Source of the DNA: Bryobacterales bacterium | GTDB taxonomy: Bacteria; Acidobacteriota; Terriglobia; Bryobacterales; UBA6623 | Assembly (NCBI GenBank): GCA_028819235.1 | Contig: JAPPMC010000312.1 | Span: 37,927 to 101,926 of the forward strand | Reading direction: 5' to 3' | DNA length: 64,000 nt | Shown: one piece after another, positions 14,420 to 26,307 of the stretch | Layout: each line of letters opens with the position of its first letter | How positions within the stretch are numbered: the first letter of the stretch is position 1 | Made by a program: the position numbers and the translations under genes | The notes under the pieces: model-generated | Told to the model about the DNA's origin: nothing | The model's input: the letters and a program-made list of their open reading frames with translations, nothing else | Databases searched by the model: none

Positions 14420-16642
14420 TCAGTGCACGTAGATGAACTCGTTCAGGCTCATGACGGCATGGCAATATTGCACCAACTGGCTCGGGTTATCCAAGGGTCT
14501 CCGCTCCTTGCCTGCCTCCAACGCACTCGCGGGCCATTGACCGAGAAACGATAGGCCGATCTCGCGTTCTTCCACCGTCGGTGATCGAGAAAGAGCAATC
14601 CTGTATACCGACTCGATCTGTAGGCCGGGATCGCCTCCGACTCGGTCCTGCACCCGTTGGGCAAAGCGTTCTGCTTGCTCCCACACGAATGGCGCATTCA
14701 GCATGAACGCCGTGCTGCTCGGTGTCGTGCTGACGTCACGAAGGCCGATGCTTTGCGCGTTGTCCGGCGGGTCGAAGATCTTCAGGACCGGATGGAGGTC
14801 GAACCGCGGCGACATGAGATAGACGGACCGGCGCCAGGTGTCGGGGGTGTCCCTGAACGGCCGCTTGCGGTTGCCAATGGGTGTGCTTGGCCCGTAAGTG
14901 TTCGTGCGCAGCGATCCGGAGACGCTCAAGATGTGGTCGCGGATGACTTCAGCCTCCATGCGCAAGGGCCTGCGGTGCCACAGGTACTCGTTGTAAGCAT
15001 CGTGCTCGGCCTGAGCCAGATTCGTGCTGGCCGCCTGCTTGTACACGGCGCTGTTCATGATCAGCCGGTGGATCGGCTTCAATCGCCAGCCCTCCCGGAT
15101 GAGCTGGGACGCTAGCCAATCAAGCAGAGCGGGGTGCGTGGGCTCCGTACCGAGTTTGCCGAAATCGTTTGGGGTGCTGACGATGCCGCGCCCGAAATGA
15201 TGTTGCCAGAGACGATTGACGATCACCCGGGCCAGCAATGCACCGGCACCATCCTCGACATCGGTGAGCCAGTTCGCGAGCATCCCAAGGTTCGATGACT
15301 CAGACTGGGCCTCTAGGCTATTGGCGGCCTCGGCACGGGGCTGCCAATCCTTCGGGCTGCTACCCTCCCGCATCAAGACGCGCAGGAAGCCCGGCTCGAC
15401 CGGCTTGACGGGGCTTGCCCAACTGCCGCCGGCCAAGAGATGGGGCGTAGTCACCACCAGAGGGATGTGCTTGCCGCCTGCGTCTGCCTTGACGTCGGCT
15501 TTGTCGAAGAACACAGCCGTCAACTGGTAGTACTCTTCGGCCGTGATCGGGTCGATCTTGTGGTCATGGCAGCGGGCACAGCCGACCGTGAGCGCAAGGA
15601 ACGCTTGGCCGGTCGCCGAGACCATGTCATCGAGGCGGTGAAACTTGCGATCGTTCGGGTTGTCGGTCCTGCTCAGGTTGGTTCCGATCTGGACAAACAT
15701 GCCTAGGTCCCCGCGCCAGGCTGGAAAACTCTTCGGAGCGCCGGCAACCTGGAAGCGGACGAATTCGTCGTAAGGCAGATCGTCATTGAACGCGCGAATC
15801 ACCGCGTCGCGGTATCGATACGCCTCCTCTTGAATTGCGTTGTCTCCCTCGTGCGCTCCAATGCTCTCGCCAAACCGAGCCACATCCAACCAGTGCCGTC
15901 CCCACCGTTCGCCGTAGTGCGGGCTGGTGAGCAACCGGTCAACGAGCTGGCGAAACGGTGCCTCAGAGGAATCTCGAACGAATGCCTCGACTTCGTCAGG
16001 CGATGGCGGCAGACCGATCAGATCGAAGTAGGCGCGGCGGATCAGCGTGGTCCGATCGGCTTCCTGTGAAGGGCGAAACTGCATCTCGCGGAGCTTGGCG
16101 AGCACGAAACGATCGATCGGCGAGTCAGCCCACGTGGCCTCATCTGGACCTGCTGCGGCTAACTCAGGGGGATCGACCGGACTCAGGGGCCGGAAGGCCC
16201 AGTAGCGACGTCCTGATTCGAGATCCATGGCCGCCGTATCGACAGCCTTCGCATCTCTCGGATCAGATCCACCGAGGGCCACCCATTGGACGAAATCGTT
16301 GATGACCGAGTCGGGCAGTTTGCCGCCGGGCGGCATCTGCAAGTTGCGGTTCGCGTACTTTAGGGCCTCGATCAGTACCGACTGATCGGGTTGCCCCGGC
16401 ACGACGGCGGGACCCCGGGATCCGCCCTGCCGGACACCCTCACGGGTGTCGAGCTGCAGCTTCCCCATCAGCGTTCCCGTGCGGGCGGCTTCCGCCGAGT
16501 GGCACTGATAGCAGCGCTCCGCAAGCACCGGACGAATCTTCTTCTCGAAGAAGTCGATACGGTCTTGACCGAGTGCCTCGGGGACTGCCAGCAGGCTGAC
16601 GGCGATTATGAATCGGCTCACGCTACTACCCTGTGCGTGCAC
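14420..16642 (-). CDS. PSCyt1/DUF1549/DUF1553 exported protein
   Basis: A 740-residue protein with three known blocks in order. First a planctomycete-type cytochrome c domain (about residues 30-120) with one haem site CYQCH and the LQMPPGGKLP methionine region. Then DUF1549 (about 150-350) with SPIDRFVLAKL, FDLIGLPPSPDEV and GERWGRHWLDVARFGES. Then DUF1553 (about 460-720) with RVIVNRLWQHHFGRGIV, TPNDFG and HRLIMNSAVYKQ. A signal peptide (FIIAVSLLAVPEALGQ) directs export. These proteins pair with DUF1501 proteins, and the haem suggests a redox role. The start is GTG at 16642, but GTG at 16621 sits closer to the signal peptide and is as likely. Confidence 0.92.
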   Translation of the reverse strand: MHAQGSSVSRFIIAVSLLAVPEALGQDRIDFFEKKIRPVLAERCYQCHSAEAARTGTLMGKLQLDTREGVRQGGSRGPAVVPGQPDQSVLIEALKYANRNLQMPPGGKLPDSVINDFVQWVALGGSDPRDAKAVDTAAMDLESGRRYWAFRPLSPVDPPELAAAGPDEATWADSPIDRFVLAKLREMQFRPSQEADRTTLIRRAYFDLIGLPPSPDEVEAFVRDSSEAPFRQLVDRLLTSPHYGERWGRHWLDVARFGESIGAHEGDNAIQEEAYRYRDAVIRAFNDDLPYDEFVRFQVAGAPKSFPAWRGDLGMFVQIGTNLSRTDNPNDRKFHRLDDMVSATGQAFLALTVGCARCHDHKIDPITAEEYYQLTAVFFDKADVKADAGGKHIPLVVTTPHLLAGGSWASPVKPVEPGFLRVLMREGSSPKDWQPRAEAANSLEAQSESSNLGMLANWLTDVEDGAGALLARVIVNRLWQHHFGRGIVSTPNDFGKLGTEPTHPALLDWLASQLIREGWRLKPIHRLIMNSAVYKQAASTNLAQAEHDAYNEYLWHRRPLRMEAEVIRDHILSVSGSLRTNTYGPSTPIGNRKRPFRDTPDTWRRSVYLMSPRFDLHPVLKIFDPPDNAQSIGLRDVSTTPSSTAFMLNAPFVWEQAERFAQRVQDRVGGDPGLQIESVYRIALSRSPTVEEREIGLSFLGQWPASALEAGKERRPLDNPSQLVQYCHAVMSLNEFIYVH

Positions 16643-22101: not shown

Positions 22102-23871
22102 GTATTACCCAAGGCCCCTGGCAGACTGCCTGTCAGGGTCTCAGGGCTTGCGGGTCGGCATCAGTTCCGTGAGGCCCAATGCCTGCGTCAGGGCTTCCTG
22201 CGCCGCGCTGCACTTCGTCGCCACCGTTACGGTGCGGCCCGGCCCCTTCTCGCCCTGTCTCGGGTACAGCAGCTCAATCTGCTGGATCCCCGCCAGCTGG
22301 TCCTGCAGCTGCGCGATCGACAGGCCTGGCCAGACACGCTCCGCCTTGCAGCGCAAGTAGTGCGACAGCGACACCGCCAGCATGCAGTAGAACGCGTGCA
22401 CCTTGATCTTTGAATCCGTCCAGTGATGCATCGGGCCCCAGCCGGCCCAGTTGCCGCCCTTCACCCCGCGGAAGACCTGCTCCACCTGCTGCTGGCGAGC
22501 ATAGGCGTCCACCACCTGCCCTGCGCTCCAGTGGGTGCGGCTGGTCACCAGCACCGTACGCCCGAAGCGCTCCCGCAGCAGGCGGTCCAGCGCGGAATGG
22601 TCCACCTCGAAGCGCAGCTTGAAGCCGCGCTCCGACCTCGACAACTCCCACGGCAAGACCCGGGACACCCGGTTCGGGGCCAGCAGACTCCCGATGCGCT
22701 TGCGCAGCGCGGCCTCCTGGAACTTGCGCCCCGGCTTGGCCAGATCCCGCGACAGGCGACTGAGGCCTTTGGCCGCCGTGGCCATCGAGGCCGCCGTGGA
22801 GTGCAGCTGCTCGACGGCAAGCGACGCCGAGTGCGAGAGCACGCACTGGCGCTCTTCGCCATGCACGATCTCCTTCTGTGCAAAGGCCTTCACGCCGGGC
22901 TGGCGGGGCTCGAGCGAGTCCAGCTCCTCCACGGGCCGCATGCGCAGCCGTTCCGGGGCCTGGTTCCAGGGCAGCGCCGCCACCCAATGCAAGCCGTGTC
23001 GCTGCAGTTCGAGGCTGTTGGCGAGCGCCGCGGAGCCCTTGTCCATCACCAGCGTGACCGTGTCGCGCGCGACGCCCGCCCGGTCGAGCATGCGCGTGAT
23101 GCCTGGCAGAACAGCCGGCAACTCGCCGCTGTCGCTCACGTTGCCGGGATAGACGTGGTGGCACAGGCTCAGGCCGTGCTGCGCGTCGAGGGCGTAGCTG
23201 AGGCCGACTTGGCGCAGGTCGTGGCGCTTCTGCCCGCTGAGGCCGGGCTGCGTCAGCCGGCAGCGCTCGTTGGTGGAGGCGATCCAGGTCACGAAGTTGG
23301 TCGTGTCGTAAGAGAGCACGCGCTCGCCGACGAGATCGTTGGAGCGGAAGGCCTGCAGCAGCGCCGTCTGGGCGCGCTGGAGGTCGTCGTGCTCGGCCAG
23401 CTTGGGGGAGGGGGCGGTGTCGATGGCGTCGAAGTGGTTCCAGAAGGCCTGCGAGGAGAAGCGCTGGGAGGGGAAGCCCCAGAGGCGGCGCAGGCAGGTG
23501 CCCTGGTACCAGGCGGGGACGGTGGTCTTGGGGCCGGGAGAGCAGATGCGGTGGATGGCGGCCAGCAGCAGGTAGTGGGCGATGGCGGGGCCTTTGCGCG
23601 GGGCGGGCCAGACGGAGAGCAGGGCGTCGAAGGCGCCGGAGTCGCGGGCAGCGAGCCACAGGGCGCCGGGCAGGCCGAGATCGAGGGCGGTGGCTTCGAG
23701 AGGCACGGGGGCGGCCTTTTGGCGGACGAGCTTGGCGAGCCTCTCGGCGGTGCCGAGGTAGGTTTGGCTGACGATGCGGGGCTTGCCGTTGACGCGGGCA
23801 GAGACGGCGACGTAGTAGTAGTTCTGGTTGCCCTTGCGCTTCTTGATAATGGAAGCCATACAGGGTAATAC
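22102..23871 (-). mobile_element. IS1634-family insertion sequence (boundaries tentative)
   Basis: One IS1634-type transposase gene fills this element. A 9-bp inverted repeat GTATTACCC occurs at 22102-22110 and, inverted, at 23863-23871, which would give 1.77 kb, a normal length for the family. The repeat is short and no target duplication is evident, so the edges are tentative. Confidence 0.6.
22141..23859 (-). CDS. IS1634-family transposase
   Basis: A 572-residue DDE transposase of the IS1634 family. The N-terminus MASIIKKRKGNQNYYYVA is the usual opening of the family and fixes the ATG at 23859; the upstream extension is not conserved-looking. Catalytic region blocks include VLSYDTTNFVTWI (first Asp), TLVMDKGSA (second Asp) and the C-terminal ARQQQVEQVFRGVKGG with the catalytic glutamate. 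A C-terminal HAFYCMLAVSLSHYL is also typical. The gene looks complete, so the element may be able to move. Confidence 0.92.
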   Translation of the reverse strand: MASIIKKRKGNQNYYYVAVSARVNGKPRIVSQTYLGTAERLAKLVRQKAAPVPLEATALDLGLPGALWLAARDSGAFDALLSVWPAPRKGPAIAHYLLLAAIHRICSPGPKTTVPAWYQGTCLRRLWGFPSQRFSSQAFWNHFDAIDTAPSPKLAEHDDLQRAQTALLQAFRSNDLVGERVLSYDTTNFVTWIASTNERCRLTQPGLSGQKRHDLRQVGLSYALDAQHGLSLCHHVYPGNVSDSGELPAVLPGITRMLDRAGVARDTVTLVMDKGSAALANSLELQRHGLHWVAALPWNQAPERLRMRPVEELDSLEPRQPGVKAFAQKEIVHGEERQCVLSHSASLAVEQLHSTAASMATAAKGLSRLSRDLAKPGRKFQEAALRKRIGSLLAPNRVSRVLPWELSRSERGFKLRFEVDHSALDRLLRERFGRTVLVTSRTHWSAGQVVDAYARQQQVEQVFRGVKGGNWAGWGPMHHWTDSKIKVHAFYCMLAVSLSHYLRCKAERVWPGLSIAQLQDQLAGIQQIELLYPRQGEKGPGRTVTVATKCSAAQEALTQALGLTELMPTRKP

Positions 23872-24092
23872 TATCAGGATTGGAAGGTCGTGCACAAGTG
23901 GCAGACAGCGCTATATGGGCTTGCGCAACATTAACATCAGATTTATAGACGTTACCGAGACATAATCTAAGTTAGCCTGACACAGGAATGCTCAATCTGT
24001 GCCGCTGAGATCGGACCACGCCGCTTCTGCCCGCCAAGTCCGTCTGTCATATTATGGCGTAGTGACGCACTTAGAGCCGTCACCACGCCCCC

Positions 24093-24860
24093 ATGCGACC
24101 TGTCAGCTACCTCTCCGAGAAAATCCATGATCTGCTCTCCCGCCAGACCATCGCCACCCTCCCCCAACTCTCCGCTGCTCTCGGCAACTGCTCCCAGCGC
24201 ACCGCCGTGCGCAAGCTCCGCGACATCCCCCACCTCACCAGCTATTCCCACAATGGCCGCTTCTATGTCCTCGCCGACCGTCCCCAGTTCGACGCGCACG
24301 GCCTGTGGTCCTTCCGCAACGTGCGCTTCTCCTCCCACGGCACCCTCTTGAACACCATCGCCTTCCTCGTGCAAGACTCCCACAGCGGCTTCCTCGTCGA
24401 GGAACTCGATGCTTTGCTCCAAGTCCGCACCGGCGATGCCCTGCGCAAGCTCGCGCATCGGAGTCGTCTCGCACGCCAGCGGCGCCATGGCCGCTATTGG
24501 TATGCTGCCTCGGACCGCTCTGTGCGCGAGCGCCAACTCACCGCCCGCAAAGCCTTGGAGCAGCTGGAGGCCATGCCCGCCGGCCATGCCCCCGCCCGCG
24601 GTGACCTCGGCTCTGCCCTGCGCACCTTCGTCGCCTCGCTCAACGAGCGCCAGCGCCGCTGGTTTGCCGGCCTCGAGTCCTTGCGGCGAGGCCATGGCGG
24701 CGACCGCCGTGCGGCGGCCTTGCTGGGCATGCATCCCGCCACGGTCGCCCGAGGGCGCCGCGAACTCGTGGCCGGCAAGCCTCTGCCCGGTCGCGTGCGA
24801 AGACCGGGCGGCGGTCGCAAGCCGCTCGAAAAAAAAAGCCCGCAATCGTCGACGAACTGA
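24093..24860 (+). CDS. ISAzo13-family transposase, N-terminal frame
   Basis: A 255-residue frame that is the N-terminal part of the transposase. Residues 1-150 form an unusual domain, perhaps a tandem winged helix (IHDLLSRQTIATLPQLSAAL, LRDIPHLTSYSHNGRFYVLA, LARQRRHGRYWYA). Then comes the standard ISAzo13 N-terminal region with LNERQRRWFAGLESL, a helix-turn-helix (RRAAALLGMHPATVARGRRE) and VRRPGGGRKPLEKK. The frame ends soon after a run of nine A (24829-24837). The DDE half continues in the -1 frame, so a fused product needs a -1 slip on that run, or a single-base sequencing error is present. Confidence 0.85.
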   Translation: MRPVSYLSEKIHDLLSRQTIATLPQLSAALGNCSQRTAVRKLRDIPHLTSYSHNGRFYVLADRPQFDAHGLWSFRNVRFSSHGTLLNTIAFLVQDSHSGFLVEELDALLQVRTGDALRKLAHRSRLARQRRHGRYWYAASDRSVRERQLTARKALEQLEAMPAGHAPARGDLGSALRTFVASLNERQRRWFAGLESLRRGHGGDRRAAALLGMHPATVARGRRELVAGKPLPGRVRRPGGGRKPLEKKSPQSSTN

Positions 24861-24865
24861 AGCAG

Positions 24866-25792
24866 ATGCTCGAGAATGACACCGCCGGTGACCCGATCCA
24901 GGGCCACCGCTGGTGCCGGCGCAGCACAGCGAACCTCTCCCAAGCACTCTCAGAACGGGGTTTCGAGGCCTGCCCGCGCAGTGTGGCACGCCTGCTGCAC
25001 TCCCAGAAGTTCTCCTTGCGCGTGAACCACAAGCTCCTCGCCCCCAAGACCCATCCCCGTCGCGACGAGCAGTTCCAACGCATCGCCGACGTGCGCAGCC
25101 GACTCTCGCCCAGCACTCCAATTGTCAGTGTGGACTCGAAGAAAAAAGAGCTCGTGGGGCGCTTCAAGAACCCCGGCAGCACTTGGAAGCTGGAGGCCGA
25201 AGCCGTCTTCGATCACGACTTCCCCTCTTGGGCCAGCGACAAGGCCGTCCCCTACGGAATCTACGACCTGCTGGCCAACACTGGCTGGATTGGCCTGGGC
25301 CTTTCCTCTGACACGCCCGCCTTCGCCGTCGACTGCCTTGAGGCTTGGTGGGTTGCTGAGGGCCGCTTGCGCTACCCCGACGCAAGCGAGCTGACCGTGC
25401 TGGCAGACAGTGGCGGCAGCAACGGCATCTCCCCGCGCGCTTGGAAGTACTTGCTGCAGCACAAGCTCTGCAACCGCCACGGCCTGACTGTCACGGTGGC
25501 GCACTATCCCTCTGGGTGCTCGAAGTTCAATCCCATCGAACACAGACTCTTCAGCGAAATCAGCAAGAACTGGGCAGGCGTGCCCCTGGAGAGTGTTGAG
25601 ACGATCGTGAACTACATCTCGACTACAACCACAAAGACTGGACTGACCGTTCGGGCCGAGGTCATTCTCAACGAGTACGTAGTTGGCATCAAGATCGACG
25701 ACGACAAGATGGCCGCACTATCACTGACGCGCCACGAGCCCTTGCCAAGACTCAACTACACGATCTCACCCAACATGCCCAAGAACGAATGA
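24866..25792 (+). CDS. ISAzo13-family transposase, DDE catalytic frame
   Basis: A 308-residue frame with the DDE core of ISAzo13 transposases. The first Asp is in PIVSVDSKKKELVGRF and the second region in LTVLADSGGSNG. The third acidic residue is in SKFNPIEHRLFSEISKNW. Family blocks KNPGSTWKLEAE, VPYGIYDL and STTTTKTGL are clear. The frame is already open and family-like from 24829 on (KKKPAIVDEL), upstream of the ATG at 24866, so it is the continuation of the preceding frame after a -1 shift rather than a separate gene. Confidence 0.88.
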   Translation: MLENDTAGDPIQGHRWCRRSTANLSQALSERGFEACPRSVARLLHSQKFSLRVNHKLLAPKTHPRRDEQFQRIADVRSRLSPSTPIVSVDSKKKELVGRFKNPGSTWKLEAEAVFDHDFPSWASDKAVPYGIYDLLANTGWIGLGLSSDTPAFAVDCLEAWWVAEGRLRYPDASELTVLADSGGSNGISPRAWKYLLQHKLCNRHGLTVTVAHYPSGCSKFNPIEHRLFSEISKNWAGVPLESVETIVNYISTTTTKTGLTVRAEVILNEYVVGIKIDDDKMAALSLTRHEPLPRLNYTISPNMPKNE

Positions 25793-25812
25793 AGCTATTC
25801 TTGCGCGGTCCC

Positions 25813-26307
25813 TATGGCGTGAGGATAGGCAGTCAGACACCTCAACCTGGAAGAGGGTAATACACTTGCCGACCTGAGGACTGGCGGCCGACACGGATGA
25901 GGGCGGCTTGCCAGCGCAGGGGATCGCGGCTCACGTCTTGGGTCTTGGCGGGCTGCCAGCGCGGCGCGGCCGTGCGATACAGGCCACTCCTGCTTGGCCC
26001 GCGCCGGGCATCAAGCTTCACTTCAGTCGCGGTTCATTCTTGAGAACGTGCCAATTCAACCGCAGTTCCGTTTCGAACCCCGAACCAGCCCGCCCCGTTT
26101 CAGATGAGTCCGGCAAGGAAGGTCCGGTGCGACCGCACCATCGGAGGAAGTCCGCCAGCAATAGGTGCACCCGAGCCTTCCGAAACGCTCTCCTAGGCTC
26201 GCCCCAGACACTCGTTCGCCCTCCAAAGGCACCCTTCTTGTAAGGTTGCGCTAGAACCCGCACGCTCCTCAATGTGGGCTCCGCACGCCACAGACAGGGA
26301 TTCGATG
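25813..26307. other. No gene recognised
   Basis: About 495 bases between the ISAzo13 element and the esterase. A minus-strand frame (26018-26368) with a basic, tryptophan-containing product crosses it and overlaps the esterase end. I do not recognise it and do not call it a gene. Confidence 0.4.

What the first reader, a model, noticed from the sequence alone, without database searches (positions are those of the whole stretch)
24093..25792. ISAzo13 transposase split over an A9 run: likely -1 frameshifting, plus an extra N-terminal domain
The helix-turn-helix half and the DDE half lie in frames 0 and -1, and the switch point falls exactly on nine A (24829-24837), an ideal slippery site. The coding sense on both sides meets there. 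The first 150 residues before the normal ISAzo13 start are an additional, possibly winged-helix, domain I do not recognise from the family.
Basis: partly seen in the sequence, partly recalled or inferred. Interest (0 to 1): 0.5.

Follow-up and report, generated by a model that had tools for sequence, protein, structure and literature searches.

The report
Jumping gene with poly-A frame slip
This is a bacterial insertion sequence whose transposase gene is split into two reading frames at a run of nine A, and relatives in many bacterial phyla keep the same split, so it is very probably a built-in low-level on-switch rather than a broken gene.

Summary
ORF A (24093-24860) and the DDE half lie in frames 0 and -1 and meet at A9, 24829-24837, the only A or T run of 8 or more in the window. 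Decay or a sequencing slip is unlikely. Of 80 related loci, 69 show both halves: DDE is in frame -1 in 57, +1 in 8, 0 in 4. All 50 loci with the extra N-terminal region are split. Of the 57, 51 have 7 or more A at the junction, mostly GAA AAA AAA C. Both halves look under purifying selection in 17 compared pairs. The extra domain is predicted as two winged helices and is shared by a large subclade across many phyla. The element is an ISAzo13-family IS (about 23917-25812) with inverted ends and a 3-bp TAT duplication, beside an IS1634-type IS. The shift direction flips between relatives: a congeneric element with A8 needs +1, the window with A9 needs -1. This favours RNA-polymerase slippage over purely ribosomal -1 frameshifting, but some relatives carry heptamers that only suit ribosomes. 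Recoding is known in other IS families; I found no report for ISAzo13 in the papers searched.

The parts
23917..25812 (+). ISAzo13-family element, about 1.9 kb
   Evidence: inverted ends, TAT duplication, and contig C73 lacking the element between matching flanks
23914..23916 (.). left copy of the 3-bp target duplication TAT
23917..23938 (+). left terminal inverted repeat GGGCTTGCGCAAC... (15 of 22 match the right end)
   Evidence: 1 of 200 shuffles gave any such placement
24093..24860 (+). ORF A, 255 aa, two winged helices plus HTH
24114..24272 (+). winged helix 1 (ORF A residues 8-60)
   Evidence: model; FeoC Z 7.2 over 1-62
24345..24509 (+). winged helix 2 (ORF A residues 85-139)
   Evidence: model; SelB, Zalpha, MarR, ArsR type, Z 7-9
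24606..24770 (+). HTH of the ISAzo13 transposase (ORF A residues 172-226)
24805..24828 (+). possible 8-bp RNA hairpin directly before the A run
   Evidence: window shuffle p 0.03; not shown to be conserved
24829..24837 (+). A9 slippery run, recoding site
24836..25792 (+). ORF B, -1 frame, DDE catalytic half
24858..24860 (+). frame-0 stop TGA ending ORF A
25791..25812 (-). right terminal inverted repeat
25813..25815 (.). right copy of the 3-bp target duplication TAT

Best explanation
The feature is an ISAzo13-family insertion sequence of a subclade whose transposase is encoded as two overlapping ORFs joined by programmed recoding at a conserved poly-A tract. Most mRNAs give ORF A alone, a DNA-binding protein with two winged helices and an HTH, inferred to bind the ends and possibly repress. 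A minority give the full HTH-DDE transposase. In this copy (A9) the joined protein arises most likely when RNA polymerase slips and adds one A (about 60%), or when ribosomes slip -1 on A_AAA_AAA (about 30%); both may contribute. Shown here by sequence: the split, its conservation, selection on both halves in relatives, the likely element ends. Inferred: the slippage mechanism, its level, and the role of ORF A.
For: 65 of 69 scorable relatives are split at this place and all 50 with the extension are. 51 of 57 at -1 have 7 or more A; in 30 of 34 GC-rich ones, although AAA is only 30% of Lys codons outside the site. dN/dS 0.04-0.19 in ORF A (15 computable pairs) and 0.07-0.28 in ORF B (17 pairs). 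Direction needs at least 7 changes on the tree; the nearest intact congener has A8 and needs +1. IS1447, with A9 after a stem-loop, slips transcriptionally in both directions and needs at least seven A (PMC6211511, abstract and passages). PMC3711429 treats unconserved direction as a sign of transcriptional realignment (passages).
Against: No RNA or protein data. Only 9 of 69 loci are not as expected under one simple rule, but L009 and L011 (C_CCA_AAA) and L031 and L061 (A_AAA_AAG) have runs of 4 and 6 A that suit ribosomes, not poly-A slippage. No conserved stem beyond composition. The window's own lineage varies in run length, and its two other copies in the genome are degraded, so this one copy could be inactive.
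Confidence: 0.62

Rival explanations
1. Purely ribosomal programmed -1 frameshifting, IS3 or dnaX style, on A_AAA_AAA in this copy and in most of the subclade.
For: 57 of 69 are at -1 and the frame-0 codons (GA)A AAA AAA form an A_AAA_AAA heptamer. L009, L011, L031 and L061 have classic ribosomal heptamers with too few A for poly-A slippage.
Against: Eight loci, and the congener L138, need +1. The review PMC5009743 says no IS with +1 ribosomal frameshifting is known (passage). No SD-like motif in the window and no significant downstream structure (z -0.70; mean z 0.09 over 66 sites).
Confidence: 0.27
2. A decayed copy or an assembly error: the true run has eight or ten A, or the gene is dead.
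For: Single intact copy in a draft genome; other copies in G000 are degraded; homopolymers mutate easily; relatives in the genus have A8.
Against: Decay predicts about one third in frame; 4 of 69 are, none of them with the extension by the rule used. A8 would not restore the frame either. DDE and HTH halves are otherwise complete.
Confidence: 0.07
3. Phase variation: replication slippage changes the run length and switches the gene on and off between cells.
For: Run length is 8, 8 and 9 in the genus; L084 has A10 in frame.
Against: Conserved A8 at -1 in 40 of 57 loci, and hardly any in-frame member, is not what random switching gives. L084 has a broken DDE.
Confidence: 0.04
4. Two separate proteins, with ORF B started at its own ATG (24866) by reinitiation and acting in trans with ORF A.
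For: An ATG lies 5 bases after the ORF A stop.
Against: DDE-frame matches start at residue 2-4 in most loci, i.e. next to the A run and upstream of that ATG. In-frame relatives such as ISStsp1 and ISScl2 are one continuous protein.
Confidence: 0.06

Closest known systems
ISAzo13 family (NF033519, PF07592), e.g. ISStsp1 and ISScl2 of Streptomyces
   Same: HTH plus DDE transposase, inverted ends, 3-bp duplication
   Different: Those are one continuous ORF without the extension; this one is split at A9 and has two extra winged helices
IS1447 (IS3 family), transcriptional slippage at A9
   Same: A9 after a possible stem, ORF A and ORF B joined by slippage; both directions occur (PMC6211511, passages)
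   Different: Other transposase family; IS1447 needs +1, the window -1; slippage shown there by cDNA, not here
IS630-family elements with +1 and -1 clusters (PMC3711429) and the Roseiflexus IS630 stem-loop case (PMC5009743)
   Same: Related DDE enzymes (weak NF033545 match) with A-rich recoding sites and unfixed direction (passages)
   Different: Separate family by profile; the Roseiflexus site is T5C5 with a proven stem
IS3-type ribosomal -1 frameshifting (IS911, IS3)
   Same: DNA-binding ORF A, catalytic ORF B in -1, A-rich heptamer
   Different: No SD or downstream stimulator found in the window; direction not fixed in this family

Membership tests
ISAzo13 insertion sequence family | DDE domain PF07592 / NF033519 above curated cut-off | tested here: met
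   349 bits against 26.9; 367 against 200, ORF B half alone
ISAzo13 insertion sequence family | HTH region N-terminal to the DDE domain | tested here: met
   NF033519 positions 3-76 in ORF A residues 181-251, E 4e-13 (below the whole-model cut-off because only part is matched)
ISAzo13 insertion sequence family | terminal inverted repeats and 3-bp target duplication | tested here: met
   15 of 22 inverted matches flanked by TAT; 3 bp stated for the family in PMC10045372 (passage)
ISAzo13 insertion sequence family | transposition activity | not testable with these tools
   needs an experiment
IS elements with programmed recoding (ORF A / ORF B) | two overlapping ORFs that code for one conserved protein | tested here: met
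   One model spans both frames; 65 of 69 relatives split
IS elements with programmed recoding (ORF A / ORF B) | conserved slippery site at the switch | tested here: met
   51 of 57 at -1 with 7 or more A
IS elements with programmed recoding (ORF A / ORF B) | joined protein made | not testable with these tools
   needs protein data
Transcriptional slippage IS (IS1447-like) | homopolymer of at least 7-9 A | tested here: met
   A9; thresholds from PMC6211511 and PMC1088944 (passages)
Transcriptional slippage IS (IS1447-like) | transcripts of mixed run length | not testable with these tools
   needs cDNA
Ribosomal -1 frameshifting IS (IS3-like) | X_XXY_YYZ heptamer in frame | tested here: met
   A_AAA_AAA at GAA AAA AAA
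Ribosomal -1 frameshifting IS (IS3-like) | upstream SD or downstream structure stimulator | tested here: inconclusive
   Window: no SD-like motif; downstream 100 nt z -0.70; pseudoknots not modelled

The most novel reading that the evidence does not exclude
Poly-A recoding is the ancestral expression mode of a large, multi-phylum ISAzo13 subclade, with the shift direction free to flip because RNA polymerase slips both ways. A tandem winged-helix module travels with recoding: it also fronts a second, unclassified transposase type that is split in frame -1 in two genomes. The module could be a portable DNA-binding regulator that recoding attaches to different DDE enzymes.
Probability: 0.3. Interest if true: 0.6.

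Novelty: new variant of a known kind. Interest (0 to 1): 0.47.

Why it matters
If true, ISAzo13 joins the IS families that control transposase by recoding (the 2016 review names IS1, IS3, IS5 and IS630; PMC5009743, passage). Gene callers will probably have cut many such elements into two fragments or called them pseudogenes. The family also offers natural variants (A8 at -1, A9 at -1, A9 at +1, A8 at +1, C_CCA_AAA, A_AAA_AAG) in one protein context, a direct test bed for how transcriptional and ribosomal slippage replace each other in evolution.

Tried and rejected
Downstream stimulatory RNA structure: none above shuffles on average. Upstream hairpin: a test against other positions of each element looked strong, 29 of 66 sites in the best 5%, but dinucleotide shuffles of the same 30 nt removed it, 6 of 66 at p 0.05 or less, so I do not claim a conserved stem. 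SD-like stimulator: 25 of 65 recoded loci, not the window; the Gly-rich coding motif alone can give such matches.

Search of the N-terminal extension alone: no Pfam or NCBIfam family. ORF A as a whole: no PDB sequence match with E below 0.5, no plasmid hit; 43 aligned members gave only weak, inconsistent Pfam hits. Foldseek gave no hit with E at or below 0.001; the fold statement rests on the model and on VIA-align, where Z 7-9 is common for winged helices.

The codon count for the window read ORF B out of frame; the corrected count is (AAA 4, AAG 19). The first TIR test used a right region that was cut short and found none; one search is the corrected test.

Loci dropped: 11 of 80 (no DDE start or no HTH end found) and 10 of 29. 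One search listed more matches than the 29 new loci it handed out; the rest were not read.

Full report
What is there. Frame 0 reads CTC GAA AAA AAA AGC CCG CAA TCG TCG ACG AAC TGA; frame -1 reads AAA AAG CCC GCA ATC GTC GAC GAA CTG AAG. PF07592 covers the -1 half (E 2e-104). The single NCBIfam model NF033519 is matched at positions 3-76 in ORF A and 75-387 in the -1 half, so the two frames meet inside one protein at the run. The run is the only A or T homopolymer of 8 or more in the 64 kb.

Element boundaries. Scanning 23877-24092 against 25781-25870 gave one placement with at least 15 of 22 inverted matches and equal 3-bp flanks: GGGCTTGCGCAAC... at 23917 and the right end at 25812, with TAT on each side (1 of 200 shuffles gave any placement). 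PMC10045372 states 3-bp duplications for ISAzo13 (passage). Contig C73 of the same genome matches the window at 23000-23876 (97%) and again at 25810-26109 (78%) with 32 bases between. It lacks the element and serves as an approximate empty site next to the same IS1634-type IS (NF033559, 208 bits).

Relatives. The search for related loci with the DDE half returned 80 loci. In 69 both HTH and DDE ends could be scored: DDE frame -1 in 57, +1 in 8, 0 in 4. In 51 of the 57 the junction has 7 or more A, most often GAA AAA AAA followed by C. Of the 34 loci at -1 with G+C above 55%, 30 have the run, and only 1 of the 34 has another run of 7 or more elsewhere in the element. In those 30 loci AAA is 30% of Lys codons and GAA 37% of Glu codons outside the site. 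All 50 loci whose match to ORF A starts at residue 75 or before are split: 43 at -1 and 7 at +1. Of the four in-frame loci, L069 and L071 lack the run; L084 (A10) has a broken DDE and L073 a broken N-terminal part. Two loci of the short class, L064 and L073, do have extension fragments as separate matches. Named Streptomyces elements ISStsp1 and ISScl2 are single continuous ORFs.

Selection. In 17 pairs of split relatives dN/dS is 0.04-0.19 in ORF A (15 computable; one pair identical, one saturated) and 0.07-0.28 in ORF B. Pairs share members and some have only part of ORF A, so they are not independent, but none looks like decay.

Direction and motif. On a tree of 71 DDE sequences the states -1, +1 and 0 need at least 7 changes. 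The rows cover many phyla, among them Acidobacteriota, Pseudomonadota, Planctomycetota, Gemmatimonadota, Bacteroidota, Bacillota, Chloroflexota, Myxococcota and Thermodesulfobacteriota. Three Bacteroidota members use ATA AAA AAA AAC (A9, +1). A distant group without a detected extension (L078, L079, L082, L086, L087) has A8 to A10 eleven bases further upstream (CGA AAA AAA A), as if the site arose or moved separately. L009 and L011 have only CCC CCA AAA G, and L031 and L061 CTA AAA AAG G. These suit ribosomal slippage and are shorter than the seven A that IS1447 needs for transcriptional slippage (PMC6211511, passage).

The window's own lineage. A search of 257 genomes of the same order found matches at E 1e-60 in 44. 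Of the 29 new loci taken from that search 19 were scorable: 13 at -1, 2 at +1, 4 in frame (five repeat earlier loci). The nearest intact congener, L138 (57% identical), has CTC GAA AAA AAA GCC, A8, and needs +1; its frame 0 stays open for about 300 bases, unlike the window's early stop. L139 reads the same way as L138. In G000 itself two degraded copies lie head to head on C235, one with AAAGAAAA (+1) and one with a shorter run (-1). So within one genus the run is 8 or 9 and the direction flips.

Mechanism. PMC3711429 took unconserved direction within a transposase family as a sign of transcriptional realignment (passages). [quoted passage not shown] IS1447 slips both ways at A9 after a stem-loop (abstract and passages). 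The window has A9 and a possible 8-bp stem directly before it, the same arrangement. I therefore favour RNA-polymerase slippage here, with ribosomal -1 as a real rival and possible contributor. A conserved stem or downstream stimulator was not shown.

The extra domain. AlphaFold2 with 43 aligned ORF A sequences gave mean pLDDT 83.5 and two units of three helices and two strands at 8-60 and 85-139, then helices at 172-226. VIA-align pairs residues 82-147 with SelB, Zalpha, MarR and ArsR type winged helices (Z 7-9) and 1-62 with FeoC (Z 7.2). Such Z values are common, so they support the fold class, not a family. No Pfam or NCBIfam family covers residues 1-156. Part of the domain also occurs at five other places in the same genome besides C235. 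At C299 it fronts a transposase-like ORF in frame -1 (GGC GAA AAA GGG GGG) whose best model is a sub-threshold IS66 match, and in genome G492 a relative shows the same pair in frames 1 and 3.

Literature. Searches for ISAzo13 with frameshift, with transposase, for PF07592 or Rhodopirellula transposase, and with ISfinder and frameshift showed no report of recoding in this family. One broader search on transcriptional slippage and transposase listed known cases in other families. I saw listings, abstracts and passages only. Supplementary tables, ISfinder and subscription papers were not searched, so a prior mention is possible.

Noticed in passing
G000:C299 (L096, L166) and L167: A second, unclassified transposase-like gene is fronted by the same tandem winged-helix region in another frame (-1); further copies of its downstream part lie on C24, C102, C14 and C161.
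   Followed up: partly
window 22141-23895 and G000:C73 (L004): An IS1634-type IS next to the element; a 97% identical copy on C73 lacks the ISAzo13 insertion between matching flanks.
   Followed up: yes
L078, L079, L082, L086, L087: A distant ISAzo13 group, mostly Planctomycetota, has its own A8 to A10 site eleven bases upstream of the usual one, also at -1.
   Followed up: partly
G000:C235 (L102) around 14787: Two degraded relatives of the element lie head to head, meeting near 14787, both with frame breaks at the junction.
   Followed up: partly
window 24880-24915: A hairpin-forming stretch about 42 nt after the run codes for the conserved TAGDP motif; probably too far to stimulate frameshifting.
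   Followed up: no
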